In this document: piece after piece, positions 37,709 to 53,922 of the stretch | Numbering within the stretch: position 1 is the stretch's first letter | How the letters are laid out: every line of letters starts with the position of its first letter | NCBI GenBank assembly: GCA_017439405.1 | Contig: JAFSJF010000143.1 | Location: 1 to 64,000 of the forward strand | Length of the DNA: 64,000 nt | From: Bacteroidales bacterium | Lineage (GTDB): Bacteria; Bacteroidota; Bacteroidia; Bacteroidales; F082 | Reading direction: 5' to 3' | Made by a program: the position numbers and the translations under genes | Notes under the pieces: generated by a model | Told to the model about the DNA's origin: nothing | What the model saw: only the letters and a program-made list of their open reading frames with translations | Databases searched by the model: none

Positions 37709-37716
37709 CAAAGGTA
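37709..37716 (-). promoter_or_regulatory. -7 element of the barrel receptor gene
   Basis: TACCTTTG on the minus strand, 20 bases before the ATG at 37688. Confidence 0.55.
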
Positions 37717-37886
37717 AAAAAACTATTGCTAAAACTCAAAGATTGAAGCGAATTGAATGGCTAAAATGTTTGCCCGAACCGACCACAAAGGCAACTAAAG
37801 GATTCCATTTGGATACCCAATCACTGCAGCGAGTACCGTTCCCGATTCTTTGGGATGGTATGATGACACGGAAACAGTCTTTTTTG

Positions 37887-42325: not shown

Positions 42326-45300
42326 ATGAAAAAACTGTTGTTTACTATTTTGACGGCTATCCTCTGCATGGTGGGATATGCCCAAAGTGTCATCGACCCG
42401 TTATTGGCGGAAGAAATGGAGCGTAGCGGTGATGAGGACAGGATCCCTGTCGTTGTCATTATGAAGTCGCAGTATGACCGGATGGAACTCACCCGCCGTG
42501 CCGCACAATTCGCCATCCGTGCTGACCGCCGCGAGTTTGTGGTCAACGAGCTGAAAGCTTTTTCCGAGGCCTCGCAATACGACTTGAGACTCACGCTTTC
42601 CGAGATGGAGCGTGGTGGCATGGCGACAGACCCCACCGTCTTGTGGATGGCGAATGCCCTCTATTTCGATGCCACAAAGGCCGCAGTCGAAGCCCTCGCC
42701 ATGCGCAACGACATTGAAATCATCGGCTATGCCATCGAGCGTCACTGGATTCCCGACGGCGAGGAAGCTCGTCCTGCTTCGGCCACACGCGAGATTACGC
42801 CCAATGTCACGCAAGTGGGTGCCGACCAAGTGTGGGCTTTGGGCTACATGGGCGATGGTGTTGTGGTGGCCGTCATCGATACGGGTGTCAACTACAACCA
42901 TGTTGATTTGGCCGGTCATCTTTGGGATGGCGGCGAGGAGTTCCCGCACCATGGCTATGACGTAATCAACAATGACGACGACCCTATGGACGATAATGGA
43001 CATGGCTCGCACTGCTCGGGTACGGTGTGCGGCGATGGTCACGGCGCTTCGCAAACAGGCATGGCTCCCAATGCCACGCTGATGTGCGTCAAGTGCTTGG
43101 ATTCGAATGGCAACGGTGGCGCCCAAAGCATCAGCCAAGGCATCCAATGGGCTGTCGAGCATGGCTGTGACTTGTTCAGCATGTCGTTGGGCATCGCCAA
43201 TTCAACCGTTGCCGAGCGCACCTTGTTGCGACTCACTTGTGAGGCCGCCTTGGACGCTGGTGTCGTGGCCGCCATCGCGGCAGGCAACGAAGGGGCCAGC
43301 CAATGGCAGTTTCCCGTCCCGAACAACGTGCGTGTGCCGGGCAGCTGCCCACCCCCGTATTTGGACGAGGTGCAAGGCGCAAACCCTGGCAAGCTGAGTT
43401 GTTCGGTGTGTATCGGGGCCGTGGATTATAACGACAATGCCGCCTATTTCACTTCGCGCGGCCCTGTCACTTGGACCAACACCGAGTTTGGCGACTATCC
43501 CTACAACCCGGGCATAGGCCTCATCCGCCCCGATGTGTGCGCGCCGGGCGTCGATATCAAGTCGATCAACTACGCCTCCAACACGGGGTACACCAACATG
43601 AGCGGCACCTCAATGGCCACACCTTGCGCCGCCGGATGCATGGCCTTGATGCTGAGCAAAAACATCAACCTGTCGCCAGAGGAAGTGTGTCGCATCCTCG
43701 AGGAGACGGCTGTGCCGCTCGCTGTTGGCAAAAGCAATACCTATGGCTTTGGCCGTATCAATGTGCTGGACGCTGTCAATGCCGTTCCGTCTTCCCTCTT
43801 GCAATACAACTCTTTCGCCATCAACGACTTGATGGGCAACAATAACCATAAGCTCAATCCCAACGAGTCGGTTTCGTTGTCGATTACGCTTGACAACGTT
43901 TCCGAGAACCCTGTAAGCAATGTCACCCTTGTGTTGACAACGGATAATCAGGATGTTAGCATTACGAATGGGGAAGTGCAGGTCGCTGAATTTGCTGCCA
44001 ACGAGTCGCTGACTATCGGGGATGCTTTCGCGTTTTCCGTCGGCGATGGGGTGGTAGCCAAGCAGCAAATCAGGTTCGGGCTGAAGGTTTTTGTCGATGG
44101 TGAACAGGTATCGGTTTTCTATTTCGATGTCGAAGTGTTTGATTATCTGTTGCAATATGCTACTGCAGTCGTCTTGAACGACGACAATGGCCTCCTCGAA
44201 CCGGGCGAGACTGCCGACCTGCGCATCATCATCGACAATTGTGGCAACGAAATGGTCCAAATGCTGAATGGATCCCTTTCAACTGAATATGAGTTTGTTA
44301 CGCTGAACGAAACCGAGAAACCCTTCAATACCATTGGCCCCGACATGATGGGATACGCCGACTTCAGCGTCACATTGGACGAAGCAGCTCCCGAGGGTGT
44401 CGCCATCCCTTTCTTCCTCGACCTCGAGGATGTCCATGGAAGGCATAACGAGTTGGATTTCAGTTTCAAGAACTCGTGCCGGATTCTCTTCGTGCTTCAC
44501 GATTCCGGCGGCAACGGATGGCAGGGATGCTACTTGCGTGTGTCTTATTCCGAAGGGTTGCCTGTCGAGCAAATCACCTTGGAAGAGGGCAGCGAGGCCA
44601 CCTTTTCCCGCGACGTGCCGTCGGGAAGCCGGTTGATGCTGCATTGGAACAACGGACAGGGTGCTTCGCAGTGCAGCTTTGAGCTTGTTTACGAGGACGG
44701 CACTGTCATCTTCGAGAACAGCGGCGGCTTCAGCGGCAACAAGTTATTCACCATCGATTGTGCCAATGGCAGCAGTGCCCCTGAGCTTTGCCATCCGGTG
44801 CAAAACCTCAGCTACACCTTGGACGACCACGACGTGATTCTCACGTGGGATGCCCCAAGAGACTTGTTGCCTGTGGGTTATGAAGTGTATCGCGAGACCG
44901 TTCTCCTTGCCTTCACGGAGGAATTGACCTATACAGACCCCGGTTTGGAAGACAGCACCTACAACTATTGCGTCTATTCCGTTTATGAGGACTGCCATAG
45001 CGAGTTCGCATGCTTGGTGGCTGAGGTGAACTCATGTGCACCTGTCCAGAATCTCGACTACACCTTGGACGACGACCTGTCGCTCACCCTAACTTGGGAT
45101 GAACCCGTATTCACCGCTGGACTGCTTGAGTATCAAGTCTATATGGACGATGAACTTGTCGGTTCAACCAACGAGTTGACCTATACATTCACCCTTGGAA
45201 CAGGCCAACACGACATCACGCTGAGGGCGGTCTTCGTGAATTGTGAGCTTGATTCCCACGTCGGTGTGTGCGTCGTCGGTGCAGTGGAAGGCTTGGACTA

Positions 45301-46468
45301 TCTGAATACCGATGGCCGTTTCGTCCATGTGTTGTGGACTCCCATTTCTGGAATCAGTGAATATGAAGTCTATGTCAATGGCGAATGGACTGAAACGGTT
45401 GAAGGAAACTTGTATGTTGCTGAATTTGAGGCTGGTTTGACCACCGTTACGGTGAAAGCTGTTGCCGAGGGATGCTACGTGTTGGGCAGCAGCATCGATG
45501 TTTGCGTCATCGACCCGATCGAGGGCTTCACGTTTAGCGACCTCGACGGCGAGCAGATGATGAGATGTTCATGGAATTCGGTTGCATACGCCGAGCATTA
45601 TAGTGTGATGGTCAATGGAGAAGCGATTGGCGAACAACTCACAGAGCCTTATTACACCTTTGCGCCACAAGTGGGTGCAAACGAGGTTTGTGTGATTGCG
45701 ACATCGGTTTACGGTTGCTTTACATGGCCCTACGAGTGCGCCACGCAAATGGTTTATCCCGCCGTCAATGGTTTCGATTATTCCTTCAATGGCAACCAGG
45801 TCAGTCTCAGCTGGAATGGCGATGCGCCGAGCTATGCCATCCGACTCGACGACATGGAAGAGGAATTCGTCGGGACCAATACGCTCACCAAGGAAGTGGC
45901 CGATGGCGACCATCTCTTGACGGTGGTGCCCATCTATCCTGACGGTCCGGCCATCCCGACCCAGTTCATGTTCACCGTCACCAATCTCGTCACTGAAATC
46001 CAAGTCACGGAGGTGCACGAGGGCATCATGGCCACGGCTTGGACGGCGGTGGAGGGTGCCGTTGCCTACAACCTCTATCGCGATGGCGAGCTGATGGCCG
46101 GGAACCTCGCCGCCACCGCGTATGACGACCACGAAATGCCTCTCAATGCAGTGCATTGCTACTCTGTGCAGACGGTGTTCGAGAAAGGCGTTTCCGACCT
46201 TTCCGATGGGGCTTGTGCCAACTACTTCCAAAGTGTGGACGAGAACGACGGGTGGGTGAAGGTCTTCCCCAATCCGACTTCCGACAAAGTCACCGTTGAG
46301 TGCGAAGGCATGACACAAATCGAGGTTTATTCTGCTGAGGGCAAACTCGTCCAACGCGTCAAGGTGGAGGGTGACGTGTGTCAAATCGACGGCCTCGAAA
46401 GCGGCGTCTATATGTTTCGCATCCTGAAGGGTGAAGGAGTCCTCACCCGAAAGGTGGTAAAGAGGTAA
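42326..46468 (+). CDS. Secreted S8 subtilisin-like protease with fibronectin-like repeats and T9SS sorting domain
   Basis: This is a 1380-residue extracellular serine protease. It has a signal peptide (cut near MVGYAQS) and a propeptide region (about 25-155). The S8 catalytic domain has Asp185 in AVIDTGVNY, His226 in DNGHGSHCSGT, Asn in AAGNEGA near 319 and Ser429 in GTSMATP. After beta-sandwich domains come about five related modules (residues about 820-1250), each opening with Cys then PVQNL/AVEGL/PIEGF-like wording and TLTWDEP-like strands. The C-terminus is a T9SS type A sorting domain (VFPNPTSDKVTVE to GVLTRKVVKR). The catalytic set is complete. Substrate is not evident. Confidence 0.95.
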   Translation: MKKLLFTILTAILCMVGYAQSVIDPLLAEEMERSGDEDRIPVVVIMKSQYDRMELTRRAAQFAIRADRREFVVNELKAFSEASQYDLRLTLSEMERGGMATDPTVLWMANALYFDATKAAVEALAMRNDIEIIGYAIERHWIPDGEEARPASATREITPNVTQVGADQVWALGYMGDGVVVAVIDTGVNYNHVDLAGHLWDGGEEFPHHGYDVINNDDDPMDDNGHGSHCSGTVCGDGHGASQTGMAPNATLMCVKCLDSNGNGGAQSISQGIQWAVEHGCDLFSMSLGIANSTVAERTLLRLTCEAALDAGVVAAIAAGNEGASQWQFPVPNNVRVPGSCPPPYLDEVQGANPGKLSCSVCIGAVDYNDNAAYFTSRGPVTWTNTEFGDYPYNPGIGLIRPDVCAPGVDIKSINYASNTGYTNMSGTSMATPCAAGCMALMLSKNINLSPEEVCRILEETAVPLAVGKSNTYGFGRINVLDAVNAVPSSLLQYNSFAINDLMGNNNHKLNPNESVSLSITLDNVSENPVSNVTLVLTTDNQDVSITNGEVQVAEFAANESLTIGDAFAFSVGDGVVAKQQIRFGLKVFVDGEQVSVFYFDVEVFDYLLQYATAVVLNDDNGLLEPGETADLRIIIDNCGNEMVQMLNGSLSTEYEFVTLNETEKPFNTIGPDMMGYADFSVTLDEAAPEGVAIPFFLDLEDVHGRHNELDFSFKNSCRILFVLHDSGGNGWQGCYLRVSYSEGLPVEQITLEEGSEATFSRDVPSGSRLMLHWNNGQGASQCSFELVYEDGTVIFENSGGFSGNKLFTIDCANGSSAPELCHPVQNLSYTLDDHDVILTWDAPRDLLPVGYEVYRETVLLAFTEELTYTDPGLEDSTYNYCVYSVYEDCHSEFACLVAEVNSCAPVQNLDYTLDDDLSLTLTWDEPVFTAGLLEYQVYMDDELVGSTNELTYTFTLGTGQHDITLRAVFVNCELDSHVGVCVVGAVEGLDYLNTDGRFVHVLWTPISGISEYEVYVNGEWTETVEGNLYVAEFEAGLTTVTVKAVAEGCYVLGSSIDVCVIDPIEGFTFSDLDGEQMMRCSWNSVAYAEHYSVMVNGEAIGEQLTEPYYTFAPQVGANEVCVIATSVYGCFTWPYECATQMVYPAVNGFDYSFNGNQVSLSWNGDAPSYAIRLDDMEEEFVGTNTLTKEVADGDHLLTVVPIYPDGPAIPTQFMFTVTNLVTEIQVTEVHEGIMATAWTAVEGAVAYNLYRDGELMAGNLAATAYDDHEMPLNAVHCYSVQTVFEKGVSDLSDGACANYFQSVDENDGWVKVFPNPTSDKVTVECEGMTQIEVYSAEGKLVQRVKVEGDVCQIDGLESGVYMFRILKGEGVLTRKVVKR

Positions 46469-46574: not shown

Positions 46575-47372
46575 ATGCGCAGAATCCTACTTTCCGTGGC
46601 CCTGTCGTTGGGCTTTGTGGCCCAGCTTGCGGCTCAAACTCCGAGAGACATCATGAAAGAAGCCATTCCCGTGGCGATGTTTCAGGTCACTTACGCCTTC
46701 CATCTTCCTGCTCTTGACCAGAAAGAGACATACGGCATCAGCAACACCATCGGGGGAAGCTTTGTTTACAAAACAGAATCCAATTGGCTTTTCACCGCTA
46801 ACGGCAACTACATCTTTGGCAGAAAAGTGAAAGGCGACCGCATCGACATTTTCGGCGAGGGTATCACCACCGAGCATGGCGAAATCATTGGCGGCGGAGG
46901 CAGTGTCGCCTTGTTTTCTGTCAACCAAAGGGGATTCCATTTTCAGGCAGAAGTCGGCAAGCTGTTCCCTTTCTGGCCCAATCCCAACAGCGGCTTTTTT
47001 GTTCAGGCGGGCGCCGGCTACCTGCGCAACCGCACCCGTATCGACTTCCAGCAGGAGATGTACAACACGCCTTATCCGGTTTACGGCGACTATGAGTACG
47101 GCTACGACCGTATGCGAGGCGGTCTGGCGGCTCATCTTGAGGCGGGCTACCTCTACATCGGCGACAACCGAATCACCAACCTCTCCGTGTCGTTAGAAGT
47201 GACCTATGCCCGCACTCGTGACTTGCGCGACTACGACTTCCGCGTGTTCGACGGCGTTCCGGTTGGCCACACCGACCCTAACAAGCGTTACAACGACCTC
47301 TACTATGGCATCCGCGTCAGCTGGAACATCCCGACCTATCAGCGCCAGCCGGAAGCCTACTACTACAATTGA
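46575..47372 (+). CDS. Outer membrane beta-barrel-like protein, hypothetical
   Basis: This is a 265-residue protein with a signal peptide (cut after QLAAQT). The mature sequence has amphipathic strands such as NTIGGSFVYKTESNWLFTAN near residue 55, then FFVQAGAGYLRNRTRID and SVSLEVTYARTRDLRDYD. It ends at a short strand, as a small barrel does. I recognise it as a conserved Bacteroidota protein without a named family. Its stop (TGA 47370-47372) lies 8 bases before the waaA ATG, so the two are co-translated, and a role in LPS or outer membrane handling is possible. Confidence 0.75.
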   Translation: MRRILLSVALSLGFVAQLAAQTPRDIMKEAIPVAMFQVTYAFHLPALDQKETYGISNTIGGSFVYKTESNWLFTANGNYIFGRKVKGDRIDIFGEGITTEHGEIIGGGGSVALFSVNQRGFHFQAEVGKLFPFWPNPNSGFFVQAGAGYLRNRTRIDFQQEMYNTPYPVYGDYEYGYDRMRGGLAAHLEAGYLYIGDNRITNLSVSLEVTYARTRDLRDYDFRVFDGVPVGHTDPNKRYNDLYYGIRVSWNIPTYQRQPEAYYYN

Positions 47373-47380
47373 TTCCCGCG

Positions 47381-48625
47381 ATGCTCCTGTTTACCATAGG
47401 CGTTCTGCTTTACACCTTGGGCGTGAAGGTGGCGGCCTTGTTGGGTAACTCCAAGGCCAAGCAATGGGTCGAAGGGCGCAAGGCGCAAAGCCAGAAGCTG
47501 GCCGAAAGGCATGCTGCATCTCAACGCCAGGCCGACTGGATTTGGTTTCACGCCGCTTCCTTGGGCGAGTTTGAACAAGGCCGGCCCGTCATCGAGGCCT
47601 TGAAAAGGGACTATCCCCAATGCAAGATCCTGCTGTCCTTCTTCTCGCCGTCGGGCTACGAAGTGCGCAAGGACTATCCTTTGGCCGACGAGGTGCTGTA
47701 TCTGCCTGCCGACACGCCGAAAAACGCCGCCGCTTGGATTGGCCGCCATCATTTCGTGGCCGCCTTCTTCATCAAGTATGAGTTTTGGTTCAACTACATG
47801 AGGGCGTTGAAGGAGGCAGGCATTCCTTTGTTTTACATCTCATTGATTCTCAATAAAAAATCGTACTTTTTCAAACCTTATGGCAAAACGTTTCGCAAGC
47901 AGCTGTCATGTGTGAGCCATTTCTTCGTGCAGGACGAAACCACGGCGAGATTGCTGGAAGGCATTGGATACAGGAACGTCACCGTTTGCGGCGACACCCG
48001 CTTCGACCGTGTGGCCGCCATTGCGCAACAGGCCAAGCCTTTCCCCGAAATCGAGCGTTTCATTGGCGGGCGGCATTGCATTGTCGCTGGCAGCACATGG
48101 CCTTCCGACGAGAGCTTGCTGGCCGGATATATGCCCAAACTGCCCGATGGCTATTGCCTTATCATCGCGCCGCACGACATCTCAGCGGGCCATGTCGCCC
48201 AAATCCAGGGCTTGTTTCCCGAAGCGTGCCTTTATTCCGAACTTGACGCTGAAAGACCATCGAAAGTTTTGGTCGTCAATACGATAGGCATACTTTCACA
48301 GCTGTACCAATATGCGCGTTTCGCCTACATCGGCGGTGGTTTCGGGGCAGGCATCCACAACATTCAGGAGCCGGTCACCTTCGGCTGCCCGGTGGTGTTC
48401 GGCCCGAAACACAAGAAGTTCAAGGAAGCGGTCGATTTGGTCGCTTTGGGCGGGGCCTTTGCCATCGAAAGCCAGCATGACCTCGACGCGGCTTTCTCGC
48501 GCCTCATCGCCGACGAAACGTTTTATGCCGCAGCCTCGTCCATTTGTAGAGTCTATCTCAAAAGCCAGCTTGGGGCCACCGAAACCATCCTCAAAAACCT
48601 TCCCCTTAGCCTCAAGGAGGCCTAA
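47381..48625 (+). CDS. waaA: 3-deoxy-D-manno-octulosonic acid transferase
   Basis: WaaA adds Kdo from CMP-Kdo to lipid IV-A on the inner membrane. The 414-residue GT30 protein has an N-terminal membrane anchor (MLLFTIGVLLYTLGVKVAAL) and WFHAASLGEFEQGRPV near residue 47 with the acceptor-site Glu. IKYEFWFNYM near 128 and YIGGGFGAGIHNIQEP near 309 complete the signature set. The ATG at 47381 is used; a TTG at 47369 overlaps the previous stop. The gene completes the Kdo pathway with kdsA at 6813. Confidence 0.95.
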   Translation: MLLFTIGVLLYTLGVKVAALLGNSKAKQWVEGRKAQSQKLAERHAASQRQADWIWFHAASLGEFEQGRPVIEALKRDYPQCKILLSFFSPSGYEVRKDYPLADEVLYLPADTPKNAAAWIGRHHFVAAFFIKYEFWFNYMRALKEAGIPLFYISLILNKKSYFFKPYGKTFRKQLSCVSHFFVQDETTARLLEGIGYRNVTVCGDTRFDRVAAIAQQAKPFPEIERFIGGRHCIVAGSTWPSDESLLAGYMPKLPDGYCLIIAPHDISAGHVAQIQGLFPEACLYSELDAERPSKVLVVNTIGILSQLYQYARFAYIGGGFGAGIHNIQEPVTFGCPVVFGPKHKKFKEAVDLVALGGAFAIESQHDLDAAFSRLIADETFYAAASSICRVYLKSQLGATETILKNLPLSLKEA

Positions 48626-48659: not shown

Positions 48660-48690
48660 TTTGTTTTTTTGTTTTTTATGACTATTTTTG
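48660..48690 (+). promoter_or_regulatory. Full Bacteroidota promoter of the PdxA-like gene
   Basis: TTTG (48660-48663), 19 bases, then TATTTTTG (48683-48690) fit the -33/-7 consensus with correct spacing. The leader is about 40 bases to the ATG at 48736. This is the best match of a full promoter in the window. Confidence 0.65.
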
Positions 48691-48735: not shown

Positions 48736-49725
48736 ATGGCAGAAAACAACGCAAATCAACTATTGCCCCGTGTCGGGTTGACACACGGCGACATCAACGG
48801 TATCAGTTACGAGACCATTTTGAGAGCTTTTGGCGACTCGCGAATGATGAGCACAATGACTCCCGTCCTTTACGGGCAGTCGAAAGCCTTGTCCTACTAC
48901 AAGAAAAACTTCGGAATGGACGATTTCAGCTATTCGCTGACGCGCGACGCCCGCCAGTCGTGGAACCAGAAGTTCAACATCCTCAACATCGTCGATGACG
49001 AACTGAAGATTGAGGCGGGCAAACCCACCGAGGTCTCCACTCAGATGTCGGTGCTCTCCCTGAAGAAGGCCGTGGAGGACCTGAACGATGGCTACATCGA
49101 CGCCTTGGTCATGACTCCCACCTGCCGCGCCGTCGAGAAAAGCAACAACGACTACCTCCTCTCGTTCCACAAGGGCAGGGAAGTGATGCGGGTGATGGTG
49201 AACGACATGTTGCGCATTGGCCTCGTCACCGACGACATCCCTGTTGCCGAGGCGGTCAGGCTGATCGACGGCAAGCGGGTTGGGCAACGTTTGCGCACTT
49301 TCTCCAAAGCGCTGAAGGAGGATTTCGACCAGGCTTCGCCCAAGATCGCCGTGCTGGGTCTCGACCCGTTTTCTTCCGATGACGGCCCTGAGAACGACAT
49401 GGTGTCGGCGGCAATCAAGGCCGCTCGTGATTCGGGCATCTTCGCTTTCGGGCCTTTTCCTGCATCGAAGCTCTTTGGCGACGGCTTGTGGCGGAAATAC
49501 GATGCGGTTCTGGCGCTCTACCAAGAGCAGGCTTGCCTGCCGCTCAAGTTGCTGTCGTCGGGCGGCTGCGCATACTATTGGGCGGGTTTGCCCGTCTTGT
49601 GCGCCGCGCCCGTCGAAGGCCCCGGATTCGAAATCGCCAACACGAGAAAAGCCACGCCCGACGCATTGCGAGCCGCGCTCTATCTTGTCACGGATGTGCT
49701 CTGTCATCGGCAGGGCACGAAATGA
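48736..49725 (+). CDS. PdxA-family protein lacking the metal-binding histidines
   Basis: The 329-residue protein aligns by eye along its whole length with 4-hydroxythreonine-4-phosphate dehydrogenase of Bacteroidota: VGLTHGDINGISYETILRAF near residue 13, LRIGLVTDDIPVAEA near 160 and FGPFPASKLFGDG near 236. But the three His that bind the catalytic metal are replaced: Asp167 (GHIP-like loop), Phe212 (LNPHAG loop reads LDPFSS) and Gln263 (MYHDQ reads LYQEQ). The GHTEY loop is gone too. It is either a pseudoenzyme or has a new reaction. The gene name pdxA would be misleading. It has the best promoter in the window and no obvious decay (no frameshift). Confidence 0.85.
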   Translation: MAENNANQLLPRVGLTHGDINGISYETILRAFGDSRMMSTMTPVLYGQSKALSYYKKNFGMDDFSYSLTRDARQSWNQKFNILNIVDDELKIEAGKPTEVSTQMSVLSLKKAVEDLNDGYIDALVMTPTCRAVEKSNNDYLLSFHKGREVMRVMVNDMLRIGLVTDDIPVAEAVRLIDGKRVGQRLRTFSKALKEDFDQASPKIAVLGLDPFSSDDGPENDMVSAAIKAARDSGIFAFGPFPASKLFGDGLWRKYDAVLALYQEQACLPLKLLSSGGCAYYWAGLPVLCAAPVEGPGFEIANTRKATPDALRAALYLVTDVLCHRQGTK

Positions 49726-49778: not shown

Positions 49779-51698
49779 TTATTTCACGATGAACTTCTGC
49801 GTGTCGCTGCCGGCGCTGATGAAATAGACGCCGCTGTTGAGGCCGCTGAGGTCGATTTGGTTGACGCCAGCATGTCCTTCCATGGTGCGGATGACTTGGC
49901 CCGTGATGTTGTAAACCGCAATCTCAGAGTTTTGGTTGAGGCTCACGTTGAGGATGTCAACGGCAGGGTTGGGATAGAGGCTCATGCGGGTGTTGTGGCT
50001 GATTTGCTCTTCGAGGCCGACTCCCTCATCCGGGAATATGTCGTTCAGCTCGAAGGTGAAGCCTTGGTAGTAGTTGTCGTAGGCATCTTCATCGTCGCTT
50101 TGGACGTAGGTGCCGGTGCTGCCGTCAGCTTGGCAGGCGATGACGAGGGTCGTGCCGATGATGGTGGCTTGAGGATAGACGCACTCCGAGTATTGGAACA
50201 TGAAGTCGTTGGTCAGGTGGACAGGCTTGCCCCATGTGCGGCCACCGTTGCCTGAGTGGGCGGCAAAGAGTTTGTAGAAGAAGTTGCCGGCACCGTCTGT
50301 GTTGTTTTCATCCATGGCGACCCACACGGTCACTAAGTCCCAGCCGTTGCTGCCAGGGACGACGCAGAGCACGGGCATACCAGCGGCACCGCTGTTGTAG
50401 GAGCCGTGTTTGGAGAAGTCGTCGATGTTCATGCTTTCGGCTTCTTCCCAGCTTTGCCATTCACCGTTCTCATCGATAGGGGCTACGTAGCCGAAGTAAG
50501 CAGGATTGTTCCAAGTTTGGTCGCTCCAACGCGGCCAGGCGGCATAGATGTCGCTATACATGTAACCACTGTCCATCACGAAAGGCTCGCCGGGTTTGGG
50601 AGACATCGCGTTGGTCGGGTCGTAGCCGTAGATGGCATGAGTCTCGGTGTCATCATAAGGCATGTTTTCGCTCCAGAAGGCAACGCCACCGAGGCTGGGA
50701 TAGTAGCTGCCCGAGCCAGGTTCGCCGGTAGAACCGTTGAATTCGTAGGCAAGGCAGAGTTCGCCGTCTCTACCCCATTGGGCGGAAGTCCAACGAGGAT
50801 ACATGAACCAGGTGCCAAAGGTGGAGTTGATGCCGGGGTGGTGGTAGAAGGTCTTCTTTTCCCAGGTCTCACCGTTGTCATAGCTGTAGAGCACCATGCC
50901 ATCGCTCCAAGCGCTGTTGATGACGAGGGCGAGGCAGTTGTCTTCGGTGGTCTCCATCCAGTAGTAGTCGTTGGTGCCCCAGTCGGTGCCGCACTCTTCG
51001 AGGTAGGGAAGGATCACCTCGGTCTTGTCCCAAGTCTGGCCGTCAGACGAACGCCAGTACAAGGCAGGGATGGTGCTGTCGTCAAAGTTGCCGCAGAAGA
51101 CGTGGATGATGTCGCGGTTGGCGCCAGAGGTCATCACGGAAGGGTGTGTGTACGAACCGTTGTTGGTGTAAAGGGAGGCAGGGACGCTGTTGGGCGTTAT
51201 GTTGTCCTTGTCCTCGACGATGTAAACGCCAACGTTAGTGCTGGTGTGGGCAACAACGACGATGCCGTTTTGGCCATAGCGGGCGATGGAGCCGAATCCG
51301 GTCTTCTCGCTCTCGATGCGGCCGCCGCTGGGAATCCATTCGTCGTTTACGGCATCGTAGGTGCCGATACCGGTGCCACGGTCGCTGAAGCTGCCATCGG
51401 TGGCCATGGTGTAGGCGAAGTTCACTTTGCCGTCGGGCCAAGTGATCGTCCACGTGCGGGCGCCTTGGTTCGACTGCCAGTCATAGGTGGTGTAGTCCAG
51501 TTCGCCTTGACCGAAGTCCAAGCGGGTCATGTTGGGTTGGCTTTGCACGTTTTCAAGGGCGTTCCCAGCTTCCAGTCTGGGAGCTTTCTTCATCGTGGCA
51601 ACTTCGTTCTTCGCTTCCTTGTAGGAAACGTTTCTCACTTGAGAGTAACCGGCAACGGTCACCATCAAGACCAGTGCTAAAGTAAATAACTTTTTCAT
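49779..51698 (-). CDS. T9SS cargo protein with Asp-box beta-propeller (paralog 1)
   Basis: This is a 639-residue secreted protein. It has a signal peptide (cut after VAGYSQ). The middle is propeller-like with Asp-boxes (S/T-x-D-x-G-x-T-W): SYDNGETWEKK near residue 270 and a variant SSDGQTWDKT near 230. It ends in a T9SS type A sorting domain (LYPNPAVDILNVS to TQKFIVK). Asp-boxes occur in sialidases but also in many non-enzymatic propellers; the Arg triad and Tyr/Glu pair of a sialidase are not evident. It is a paralog of the next gene and each has its own promoter and terminator. Confidence 0.9.
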   Translation of the reverse strand: MKKLFTLALVLMVTVAGYSQVRNVSYKEAKNEVATMKKAPRLEAGNALENVQSQPNMTRLDFGQGELDYTTYDWQSNQGARTWTITWPDGKVNFAYTMATDGSFSDRGTGIGTYDAVNDEWIPSGGRIESEKTGFGSIARYGQNGIVVVAHTSTNVGVYIVEDKDNITPNSVPASLYTNNGSYTHPSVMTSGANRDIIHVFCGNFDDSTIPALYWRSSDGQTWDKTEVILPYLEECGTDWGTNDYYWMETTEDNCLALVINSAWSDGMVLYSYDNGETWEKKTFYHHPGINSTFGTWFMYPRWTSAQWGRDGELCLAYEFNGSTGEPGSGSYYPSLGGVAFWSENMPYDDTETHAIYGYDPTNAMSPKPGEPFVMDSGYMYSDIYAAWPRWSDQTWNNPAYFGYVAPIDENGEWQSWEEAESMNIDDFSKHGSYNSGAAGMPVLCVVPGSNGWDLVTVWVAMDENNTDGAGNFFYKLFAAHSGNGGRTWGKPVHLTNDFMFQYSECVYPQATIIGTTLVIACQADGSTGTYVQSDDEDAYDNYYQGFTFELNDIFPDEGVGLEEQISHNTRMSLYPNPAVDILNVSLNQNSEIAVYNITGQVIRTMEGHAGVNQIDLSGLNSGVYFISAGSDTQKFIVK

Positions 51699-51888: not shown

Positions 51889-53922
51889 TTATTTCACGAT
51901 GAATTTCATGGTGTTTTCGAATCCGTTGGCTTTCACGGTGACGAAGTAGATGCCGCTTTCGAGGTTGCTGGTGTTGATGCTCGGGCGGTTGATGCCGGTG
52001 TTGATGTTGACGTTGTCTTCCATCACCTTCTGTCCCATGATGTTGAACACGCTGATGTTCATGAAGCTGCTTTGCGAGGCGTTCACCTCGATGTTGAGCA
52101 CGTCGGTGGCAGGATTGGGATAGACGCGGGCAGAGGTCATCGGGTTGACGGCCACTTTCTCTTCAACGTCCCAGCCTTGAAGGACTTCGGGGATGATCTT
52201 CACGGCGTAGATGTAGTTCTCGGTGAGGACGCCAAGGTTGCTGTCAGGATAGGTGTCGCTGATGTCAAGGTAGAGGCCTTGGTTTTCGTCGCCGGAGTAG
52301 GCCACCCAGAATTCGCCGTTGTAGGCGTTGGTGGCAGCCCAAGTGGGATATTGCTCTTCATATTCGTGGACGAAGCTGTCGCTCAGGTTGATCTCGTCGT
52401 CGAACCATGTGCCGGTGTTGTCTCTGAGGGTGACGTAGGCGCTTCTGTAGGAGAAGTTGGTGGCGGCAGAGACTCTGGTCTCCGACCACACGCTATAGAC
52501 CACGACGACGTTGCCCATGTCGTCAACGCTGACGGCGGGCATGGTGCAGAGGCCGAGTGAACGGTAGTGCCAGGTGGCGCCGATTACGTTGTCGTAGTCG
52601 ATTTGGCCGTTGCCGTTTTCGTCAACGTAGCCAAAGATGTGGAGGTTGGCTTGGTTGTCGCCCAATGCGGAAAGCTCGTCGATGCGGTCGGGGTGCAAGG
52701 TCCAGCCGAGGTGGTTGGACCCCCATTCAGCCTGGTGGGCAGCGTCGATGCTTGATTCGCCGAAGGGCAGGATTTCGTGGCCACCCAATTCGTTGACGTA
52801 GTTGGAGTTCCAATACACGATGCCATAGTAGCCGGCAGGATAGTAGTTGTAGTGCTCGGAGTCGGTCACTCTCCAGTGGAAGAGGCCGAAAGCGACGTGT
52901 ACGGTGCCGTTGTTGTCGATGGCGATGCTGTGCGAGTTGTCGCTGGTGTTGATGGTGTCGGTCATGCCTTCCGGAAAGTCGGCGAAGTCAATGGCGTGGA
53001 CGGGATTGCCATCAGCGTCGGCAATCGGGTAGGGGGCTACGATTTGGCGCTCCCAGGTCTCGCCGTTGTCGTGCGAGATGATATAGACCACCTCGGTGGT
53101 GTAGGCGCTGAGCAGGATGGCGACGTTGTTGCCGTTGGCGGCCATCACGTAGTCGTCGGCGCTGAACTGGTTGCGGTATTCGCCGTTTTCGTCATTGTCG
53201 ATGAGCGGGAGGTCGATGAGTTCGCTCCAGGTCTGGCCGCGGTCGGTCGAGCGGGTGTAATAGACGTGGTTGTCGTAGCCTTCGCCGACGGAAATCTGCT
53301 TGCACATGACGACGTGGACATACTCGCCGTTGGGGCCGCTGCAGACGATTCTCGGCCAGGTGGGTGCACCGTAGTCGTTGCCCCAGTTCATCATGAGGGT
53401 CCAATCGCCTTCGCCCTTCTTGGGACGGTAATAGACGTTGACGCCGGTGGCGTGGGAGGCGAGGAATTCGCCATCACCGCTGGCGGCGATGCTGGGCCAG
53501 CCCGACTTCATGGGTTCTTGGCGCGTTTCAGGCTCTTCGCCGAAGTTGCTGCCATCGTAGAAGTTGTAGCCGGTGCCGCGGTCGGGGTAGCCGGTGTTGT
53601 TGGAGTGATCCCAGGTGGCGACGTTGGCGACGCTACCGTCAGGCCAGGAAGCCATGCGGTTGCCGACGGCGCTGTTCGACTGCAGGTCGTAGTTGGTGGT
53701 CATGGTGCAATACTCTTCGTATTCGCCTTCCCTGACGGCGTTCACCATGTGTTCAACCTTGTTAAACTGGATGCCTTGGGCAGCCGATCCGTCGATGGTT
53801 CTGAGTGCGCTGGGCTTCTCTGCGGTCACGCTGACGTTTTTGGCAGCGTTCTTGAGGTTTCTCTGTGCAAAGCCGGTCATGGCGACGGCTAATGCGAGGG
53901 TTACAAATAAAACTTTCTTCAT
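51889..53922 (-). CDS. T9SS cargo protein with Asp-box beta-propeller (paralog 2)
   Basis: This is a 677-residue secreted protein with a signal peptide (cut after MTGFAQ). Asp-box repeats are YTRSTDRGQTWSELID near residue 230 and SHDNGETWERQI near 287. It has propeller-like strands throughout and a T9SS type A sorting domain (VYPNPATDVLNIE to ENTMKFIVK). It shares layout with the gene at 49779: signal peptide, a Gln/Asn-rich start, then a sequence running ...Y.TMTTNYDLQSNSA... against YTTYDWQSNQGA. No catalytic set of a sialidase is seen. Its neighbour on the other side is the GH92 mannosidase, so a glycan-related role is possible but unproven. Confidence 0.9.
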   Translation of the reverse strand: MKKVLFVTLALAVAMTGFAQRNLKNAAKNVSVTAEKPSALRTIDGSAAQGIQFNKVEHMVNAVREGEYEEYCTMTTNYDLQSNSAVGNRMASWPDGSVANVATWDHSNNTGYPDRGTGYNFYDGSNFGEEPETRQEPMKSGWPSIAASGDGEFLASHATGVNVYYRPKKGEGDWTLMMNWGNDYGAPTWPRIVCSGPNGEYVHVVMCKQISVGEGYDNHVYYTRSTDRGQTWSELIDLPLIDNDENGEYRNQFSADDYVMAANGNNVAILLSAYTTEVVYIISHDNGETWERQIVAPYPIADADGNPVHAIDFADFPEGMTDTINTSDNSHSIAIDNNGTVHVAFGLFHWRVTDSEHYNYYPAGYYGIVYWNSNYVNELGGHEILPFGESSIDAAHQAEWGSNHLGWTLHPDRIDELSALGDNQANLHIFGYVDENGNGQIDYDNVIGATWHYRSLGLCTMPAVSVDDMGNVVVVYSVWSETRVSAATNFSYRSAYVTLRDNTGTWFDDEINLSDSFVHEYEEQYPTWAATNAYNGEFWVAYSGDENQGLYLDISDTYPDSNLGVLTENYIYAVKIIPEVLQGWDVEEKVAVNPMTSARVYPNPATDVLNIEVNASQSSFMNISVFNIMGQKVMEDNVNINTGINRPSINTSNLESGIYFVTVKANGFENTMKFIVK

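What the first reader, a model, noticed from the sequence alone, without database searches (positions are those of the whole stretch)
48736..49725. PdxA-family protein with all three metal-binding histidines lost
Seen: the protein follows PdxA end to end (VGLTHGDINGIS, LRIGLVTDDIP, GPFPASKLFGDG, LPLK) but Asp167, Phe212 and Gln263 stand where PdxA has the three His that bind its divalent metal, and the GHTEY loop is absent. Known: PdxA oxidises 4-phosphohydroxythreonine and needs that metal site. Inference: this is a stable, expressed pseudoenzyme or an enzyme with another chemistry, since the frame is intact and the best -33/-7 promoter in the window drives it.
Basis: partly seen in the sequence, partly recalled or inferred. 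Interest (0 to 1): 0.72.

Follow-up and report, generated by a model that had tools for sequence, protein, structure and literature searches.

The report
Vitamin B6 enzyme turned pseudoenzyme
In an uncultured gut-type bacterium in which no gene for the ring-forming enzyme of vitamin B6 synthesis was found, the only copy of the preceding enzyme, PdxA, has lost its metal site and substrate loop yet is still held intact by selection, so it has likely been converted into a protein with another, still unidentified job.

Summary
The ORF at 48736-49725 is a full-length PdxA-fold protein with Asp167, Phe212 and Gln263 at the three metal-His columns and no GHTE loop; no indel displaces the His.

It is the only PdxA homologue found in its genome, where no PdxJ, PdxS or PdxH match was found. 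PdxJ was found in 1 of 75 genomes of its genus against 69 of 74 of sister genera, yet 65 of the 75 keep a PdxA-family frame. The one from the PdxJ-positive genome keeps nine of nine active-site residues; all 64 others have lost His136 and grade from nearly intact to stripped. Synteny and a tree support one orthologous gene. Even the stripped clade is under purifying selection (dN/dS like its neighbour kdtA), but constraint has moved: at matched divergence an N-terminal segment (residues 41-95, chosen after inspection) is the most conserved part and the old active site the least. Other PdxJ-less Bacteroidales show similar damage; nine diverged PdxA of PdxJ-positive genomes keep the metal His. 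Outside Bacteroidales, five PdxJ-less genomes have an intact PdxA.

Best reading: a PdxA pseudoenzyme, likely kept for a second, non-catalytic role. Partner or ligand unknown; the promoter claim is weak.

The parts
48736..49725 (+). PdxA-fold protein, 329 aa, without the PdxA active site
   Evidence: AlphaFold model pLDDT 87.7, pTM 0.88; best Foldseek matches are PdxA, E. coli 1ptm TM 0.84
48856..49020 (+). Residues 41-95: N-terminal segment that is newly conserved (TPVLYGQSKALSYYKKNFG...YSLTRDARQ...KFNILNIV)
   Evidence: 25 of 55 positions invariant in 73 aligned sequences against 39 of 274 elsewhere; matched-divergence test; limits chosen
49141..49146 (+). Residues 136-137, junction at which the seven-residue substrate loop (GHTE) is missing
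49234..49236 (+). Asp167 at the site of metal ligand His166 (E. coli numbering)
49369..49371 (+). Phe212 at the site of metal ligand His211
49522..49524 (+). Gln263 at the site of metal ligand His266
49600..49602 (+). Cys289 at the site of Arg292; Cys in 120 of 120 sequences (the query and 119 homologues)
47369..48625 (+). kdtA (3-deoxy-manno-octulosonic-acid transferase), directly upstream in 26 of 26 stripped-clade loci
   Evidence: PF04413 146 bits; gene order
46575..47372 (+). Gene upstream of kdtA (family F4, no Pfam match at E 0.01), present in 20 of 26 stripped-clade loci
48660..48690 (+). Bacteroidota-type promoter-like match upstream of the gene, weak
   Evidence: 2 matches in the window, 0.51 expected

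Best explanation
The gene at 48736-49725 is the orthologue of pdxA, has lost the metal ligands and substrate loop of PdxA in a genome where no PdxJ was found, and is under purifying selection, so it likely no longer makes the vitamin B6 intermediate and is predicted to act as a non-catalytic binding protein through its newly conserved N-terminal segment. Shown: single copy, orthology by synteny and tree, no PdxJ match, graded loss of catalytic residues over the genus, intact frames, low dN/dS, and a shift of constraint from the active site to residues 41-95. Inferred: (1) absence of PdxA activity; (2) that the segment is a binding surface, because 17 of its 25 invariant residues are polar, charged or tyrosine; (3) that this second role arose while the protein was still an enzyme, because the PdxJ-positive species G256 carries both the segment and all nine active-site residues; (4) that loss of PdxJ then freed the active site to decay.
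For: One PF04166 match in the genome, 98% complete. PdxJ in 1 of 75 genus genomes against 69 of 74 of other genera of the family (Fisher 3e-35, ignoring relatedness); PdxH in 0 of 75 against 44 of 74, 36 of them over the cut-off. Of 65 genus PdxA, the one from the PdxJ-positive genome (G256) keeps 9 of 9 residues; His136 is lost in 64 of 64 others. No internal stop in the 65. Gene order F4-kdtA-M17 aminopeptidase-pdxA-murF/alr in G256 bridges other genera (pdxA-murF/alr in 16 of 16 fetched) and the stripped clade (kdtA-pdxA, 26 of 26); the genus is one clade inside its family (95*, 98*). Stripped clade: median dN/dS 0.17 over 175 pairs; 0.134 against 0.121 for kdtA over 17 pairs. At 50-60% identity elsewhere, residues 41-95 / active-site blocks are 45% / 78% identical in canonical PdxA of other genera and families (1644 pairs), 73% / 66% in non-stripped genus members (177) and 75% / 53% in the stripped clade (135). 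Recurrence: of 14 other Bacteroidales genomes at least 95% complete without a PdxJ match, 13 have changes at the nine sites and 11 have lost at least one metal His. Control: 9 of 9 low-scoring PdxA examined from PdxJ-positive genomes of the class keep all three metal His.
Against: 10 of 75 genus genomes have no PdxA match, two of them 97-98% complete, so the role can be dispensed with. Five of five PdxJ-less genomes of 95-99% completeness outside Bacteroidales have an intact PdxA, and so has G161 inside the order, so PdxJ loss alone does not bring decay, or PdxJ was missed there. One PdxJ-positive genome also has H136Q (L002), so the first step may not abolish activity. The segment is not conserved in general: it stands out in pairs from f19 and f4 (0.60 against 0.34, 0.59 against 0.39 in the rest) but not in the pairs from f92, f56/f106 and f42/f75. 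Its limits were set after looking at the conservation table, so the tests are post hoc. Some pocket residues are newly fixed (Cys289, Trp282, Pro296), which would also fit a rebuilt ligand pocket. No expression, binding or activity data.
Confidence: 0.6

Rival explanations
1. Neo-enzyme: the old pocket was rebuilt for another, metal-free reaction or for binding a nucleotide or other ligand, and Cys289, Trp282, Tyr281 and Pro296 are its new working residues.
For: Cys at the Arg292 site in 120 of 120; C289 98%, W282 98%, Y281 96%, P296 100%, Q265 100% in 52 dereplicated stripped sequences. R292C, H266Y and H166D recur in other lineages.
Against: Active-site blocks as a whole are the least conserved part of the stripped clade (53% identity where the rest has 50-60%). 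The recurrent changes are each reachable by one nucleotide change, so mutation bias may suffice (reasoning from the code). The sites of Asp247 and Asn283 vary within the clade.
Confidence: 0.23
2. Relic in decay: after PdxJ loss the gene is useless and simply has not been lost yet.
For: PdxJ, PdxH and catalytic residues are missing together; 10 of 75 genomes have no match to the gene.
Against: No internal stop in 65 of 65; dN/dS 0.05-0.23 over 17 pairs, similar to kdtA; 25 invariant positions in one segment; persistence in 23 of 23 PdxJ-less genomes of the order sample.
Confidence: 0.06
3. Still PdxA: the protein makes the same product by another metal site, and PdxJ is replaced by an unrecognised enzyme.
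For: The least changed genus members keep all three His and Asp247; one PdxJ-positive genome tolerates H136Q.
Against: In the window's protein eight of nine active-site residues are changed and the loop is gone; it scores below the NCBI equivalog cut-off for PdxA (160 against 290 bits); no PdxH match either.
Confidence: 0.05
4. A PdxA2-like catabolic dehydrogenase (D-threonate or D-erythronate 4-phosphate) with changed specificity.
For: PdxA2 paralogues exist and are hard to tell from PdxA (PMC9997740, passages).
Against: The tree puts the protein inside Bacteroidales PdxA, away from L186, which I read as PdxA2-like; the match to the D-threonate model NF002891 is 70 bits against a cut-off of 583; the metal site is gone.
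Confidence: 0.03

Closest known systems
PdxA, 4-phosphohydroxythreonine dehydrogenase (E. coli, PDB 1ptm, 1ps6)
   Same: Fold end to end (TM 0.84), gene orthology within the family, GDxNGI motif near the N terminus
   Different: Metal ligands, substrate loop, Asn283 and Arg292 lost; no PdxJ partner gene found; a different segment is conserved
PdxA2 / D-threonate 4-phosphate dehydrogenase and terephthalate dihydrodiol dehydrogenase (PDB 2hi1, 6e85, 8zhy, 8zj7, 4aty)
   Same: Same superfamily; PdxA2 acts outside B6 synthesis (PMC9997740, passages)
   Different: 8zhy and 8zj7 are titled as a magnesium-substituted and an NAD-bound enzyme; the window's protein lacks the metal ligands
Pta-like domain of malic enzyme MaeB (PDB 6zn9, 6znt)
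   Same: Related fold; recalled as a catalytically dead domain that senses acetyl-CoA, so a precedent for a non-catalytic member of this fold
   Different: A fused regulatory domain; here a free-standing protein of unknown ligand
Pseudoenzymes in general (review PMC10211241, start of the abstract seen in a search listing only)
   Same: Lacks conserved catalytic motifs, kept by selection
   Different: No title or abstract start listed by our searches names a PdxA pseudoenzyme; here the change goes with loss of the next pathway enzyme and recurs

Membership tests
PdxA superfamily (PF04166) | Profile match above the curated cut-off, full length | tested here: met
   181.1 bits, cut-off 27, profile 3-285 of 286
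PdxA superfamily (PF04166) | PdxA fold | tested here: met
   AlphaFold model; Foldseek ranks 1-27 are PdxA or the related terephthalate enzymes
PdxA enzyme (TIGR00557) | Score above the equivalog cut-off | tested here: not met
   160.4 bits against 290.35
PdxA enzyme (TIGR00557) | Three metal-binding His | tested here: not met
   Asp167, Phe212, Gln263; the role of the His is recalled from the E. coli structure
PdxA enzyme (TIGR00557) | Substrate loop GHTE and Asn283, Arg292 | tested here: not met
   loop missing, Tyr280, Cys289; roles recalled
PdxA enzyme (TIGR00557) | PdxJ in the same genome (DXP-dependent B6 pathway) | tested here: not met
   no PF03740 match in G000, 98% complete; PdxJ used as pathway signature in PMC9997740 (passages)
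PdxA enzyme (TIGR00557) | Oxidative decarboxylation of 4-phosphohydroxythreonine | not testable with these tools
   needs an assay or complementation
PdxA2 / D-threonate 4-phosphate dehydrogenase | Match to its model | tested here: not met
   NF002891 70.2 bits against 583
PdxA2 / D-threonate 4-phosphate dehydrogenase | Kinase partner (DUF1537 type) in the genome | not tested
Pseudoenzyme | Catalytic residues lost while the gene stays under purifying selection | tested here: met
Pseudoenzyme | No catalysis, with a demonstrated non-catalytic role | not testable with these tools
   no biochemical data

The most novel reading that the evidence does not exclude
PdxA of Bacteroidales carries a hidden second, non-catalytic job; when PdxJ is lost the enzyme half is discarded and the protein is converted, again and again, into a pseudoenzyme. 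In the window's genus every step survives in living species, from a dual-role enzyme with PdxJ (G256), through enzymes with few residues changed, to a protein stripped of its whole metal site and held by a new N-terminal interaction surface.
Probability: 0.38. Interest if true: 0.82.

Novelty: new variant of a known kind. Interest (0 to 1): 0.64.

Why it matters
If true, PdxA is more than a B6 enzyme in a major order of gut bacteria. PdxA annotations in such genomes would be misread as B6 synthesis where the species are in fact auxotrophs. The genus offers a graded series, in living species, of an enzyme becoming a pseudoenzyme in place, so the old question whether the second role comes before or after the loss of catalysis could be tested directly.

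Tried and rejected
Rejected: His displaced by indels; a second canonical PdxA in the genome (none found); pseudogene; pathway replaced by PdxS in this genome (no PF01680 match in G000; 11 of 75 genus genomes have it); a PdxA2 paralogue. PdxB (PF11890) proved useless as a pathway marker: 7 of 149 in the family. The idea that divergence of PdxA by itself means loss of catalysis was rejected: nine low-scoring PdxA of PdxJ-positive genomes keep the metal His. The promoter claim was not upheld.

Led nowhere: literature on PdxA active-site residues and on PdxA without PdxJ (listings and abstract starts; none shown reports a PdxA pseudoenzyme or PdxA kept without PdxJ). The roles of His136, Thr137, His166, His211, Asp247, His266, Lys274, Asn283 and Arg292 are therefore recalled from the E. 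coli structure. P. gingivalis pdxA is called essential in PMC3547785 (one passage), but whether that species has PdxJ was not checked. Passages of PMC12393044 and PMC6593275 were seen and not used.

Rows dropped and limits of the counts. The canonical set of 72 rows left out L019, L062, L071 and L074 because a motif filter missed them; one search finds GHT, NPH and HDQ motifs in them (L062 is split by a stop). The 72 rows stand for 65 genomes, seven being fetched twice, and one (G220) has no PdxJ match. They come mostly from the best-scoring matches; three low-scoring PdxJ-positive order genomes (G113, G087, G189) were added as a check and are intact. L002 (PdxJ-positive) has H136Q. PdxJ-positive members of f42, f60 and f75 were judged canonical by score only. 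The copy identical to the query (P0002) was left out; A1 used 73 of the sequences held. G505 (fragment) was not scored, G501 is a fragment without its end, and the PdxJ-less G463 and G508 (65% and 85% complete) were not examined; G414 (86%) has neither PdxJ nor PdxA. Several minus-strand loci were misread ('canon' column); those counts are not used. L199 was cut by my start-codon choice. Tests ignore relatedness and are post hoc; its third Fisher test used a control of 28 that no call had counted and is not used here. Pairs are not independent.

Full report
What is there. The frame at 48736-49725 codes for 329 residues that match PdxA from end to end (PF04166, 181 bits) but score below the cut-off by which NCBI names the enzyme (160 against 290 bits). 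AlphaFold gives a confident model (pLDDT 87.7, pTM 0.88) whose 27 best matches among solved structures are PdxA or the related terephthalate enzymes (E. coli 1ptm, TM 0.84). Aligned with E. coli PdxA, the three metal-binding His are Asp167, Phe212 and Gln263, a seven-residue gap replaces the GHTE loop, and Asp247, Asn283 and Arg292 are Ser, Tyr and Cys. The functions of these E. coli residues are recalled, not taken from a call.

The genome. It is 98% complete with 5% contamination. One PdxA homologue was found, this one, and no match to PdxJ, PdxS or PdxH. PdxJ is used as the signature of the DXP-dependent B6 pathway (PMC9997740, passages). The species is predicted to depend on outside B6; transport and salvage were not examined.

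The genus. A search of 149 genomes of the family held 75 of the window's genus and 74 of other genera. PdxJ was found in 1 of 75 and 69 of 74, PdxH in 0 of 75 and 44 of 74 (36 over the cut-off), PdxS in 11 of 75 and 0 of 74. A PdxA-family match without internal stop is present in 65 of the 75. I fetched the other 64 with flanks and aligned all 65. The only one from a PdxJ-positive genome (G256) keeps all nine residues examined (Ec H136, T137, H166, H211, D247, H266, K274, N283, R292). The 64 others have all lost His136: to Gln or Asn where the loop is present, by deletion in the 26 that I call stripped. Among these 64, His166 is kept in 34, His211 in 60, His266 in 40, Asn283 in 9 and Arg292 in 33; in the 26 stripped members the counts are 0, 22, 2, 0 and 0. 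All three metal His are lost in 4 of 65, the window's protein among them. The loss is graded over the genus. One PdxJ-positive genome of another family (L002) also has H136Q, so that first change alone need not abolish activity.

One gene, changed in place. All 16 fetched genomes of other genera have pdxA followed by a gene with Mur ligase and alanine racemase domains (murF/alr). G256 has F4-kdtA-M17 aminopeptidase-pdxA-murF/alr, and the stripped clade has kdtA directly before pdxA in 26 of 26 and F4 before that in 20 of 26, as in the window (domains). In a tree of 87 rows built without the catalytic columns the genus is one clade (95*) inside its family (98*), the window's protein pairs with G331 (100*), and G256 lies inside one of the two halves of the genus rather than at its base. 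So PdxJ was lost more than once in the genus, or G256 regained it; I cannot decide.

Selection. Median dN/dS is 0.17 over 175 pairs of the stripped clade and 0.07 over 120 pairs of the least changed group. Over 17 pairs with both genes usable, the stripped PdxA has 0.134 and its neighbour kdtA 0.121. This is not a decaying relic.

Where constraint went. At 50-60% identity in the rest of the protein, residues 41-95 are 45% identical and the active-site blocks 78% in canonical PdxA of other genera and families (1644 pairs); 73% and 66% in the non-stripped genus members without PdxJ (177 pairs); 75% and 53% in the stripped clade (135 pairs). In 73 aligned sequences 25 of 55 positions of this segment are invariant, against 39 of 274 elsewhere, and 17 of the 25 are polar, charged or Tyr. 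The limits of the segment were set, so these tests are post hoc. G256 already has the segment in this form together with an intact active site. This is the main ground for proposing a second role carried by the N-terminal domain that predates the loss of catalysis. That it is an exposed binding surface is inferred; I had no coordinates to test it. A few pocket positions are also newly fixed (Cys289, Trp282, Pro296), so a rebuilt ligand pocket remains a rival.

Beyond the genus. In 198 Bacteroidales genomes PdxA was found in 194 and PdxJ in 175; all 23 PdxJ-less genomes (two of them of the window's genus) keep a PdxA-family match, and the 4 without PdxA (74-88% complete) all have PdxJ (three PdxJ-less genomes were not listed and follow by elimination). 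Outside the window's family, of 14 PdxJ-less Bacteroidales genomes at least 95% complete (13 of the order sample and G480 of the class sample), 13 have changes at the nine residues and 11 have lost at least one metal His; G106 and G178 keep the three His (G178 has H136Q alone), and G161 is intact. Of the eight less complete ones, seven are intact in their best copy and one has T137S only, as expected if PdxJ was missed there or lost lately; one of the eight (G111) also holds a stripped second copy. In ten stripped representatives of six families, His136, Thr137, His166, His211, His266, Asn283 and Arg292 are kept in 0 of 10, while 16 other order-wide conserved positions are kept in 9 or 10 of 10. 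The representatives were chosen for low scores, so much loss is expected; its concentration on catalytic residues is not. Families f42, f60 and f75 hold both PdxJ-positive members with high-scoring PdxA and a PdxJ-less member with changed residues, which argues for separate events; the tree supports some but not all separations.

Limits and contrary results. In the class sample outside Bacteroidales, 5 of 5 PdxJ-less genomes of 95-99% completeness have an intact PdxA, and three less complete PdxJ-less genomes were not examined. Nine low-scoring PdxA from PdxJ-positive genomes keep the three metal His, with Asn283 changed in 5 of the 9 and missing from one fragment: a control that divergence alone does not strip the site. 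The conserved segment stands out in pairs from f19 and f4 but not in f92, f56/f106 or f42/f75, so outside the genus the retained function may differ. Ten genus genomes have no match to the gene.

Novelty. Pseudoenzymes are a known kind. A PdxA pseudoenzyme, in genomes without the next enzyme of the pathway and with graded stages alive in one genus, did not appear in any title or abstract start listed by our eight paper searches, which cover open-licence papers only and list at most 20 papers each.

Where it lives. The window's own source is not known to me.

Changes on re-checking. The counts of homologues, neighbours and damaged genomes were made exact, neighbour genes were checked against Pfam, and the post hoc choice of the segment is now stated; confidence was lowered from 0.62 to 0.60, and that of the novel case from 0.40 to 0.38, for that reason.

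Noticed in passing
window 42326-46468 (+): Large subtilase (Peptidase_S8) with a type IX secretion sorting tail upstream of the kdtA-pdxA pair; its family (F9) lies there in 19 loci, the window's included.
   Followed up: partly
window 49779-51698 (-) and 51889-53922 (-): Two tandem related proteins with type IX secretion tails and weak BNR-repeat matches, convergent with the PdxA-like gene; the family (F1) recurs downstream of pdxA in much of the genus.
   Followed up: partly
L186 and L208 (genome G111): One genome holds both a PdxA-family copy with an intact site that looks PdxA2-like and a stripped copy directly downstream of a DUF4837 gene.
   Followed up: partly
L095, L096 and nine further genus genomes: PdxS, the other B6 pathway, occurs in 11 of 75 genus genomes and in none of 74 of other genera in the family sample, suggesting regain of B6 synthesis by transfer.
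   Followed up: no
L002 (genome G056): PdxJ-positive genome whose PdxA has H136Q, so His136 is not strictly tied to the presence of PdxJ.
   Followed up: no
L221-L224 (family f170): PdxJ-positive genomes with a strongly diverged PdxA that keeps the metal His but has N283H.
   Followed up: partly
window 37709-37740 (-): The only other match to the TTTG/TAnnTTTG promoter pattern in the window.
   Followed up: no
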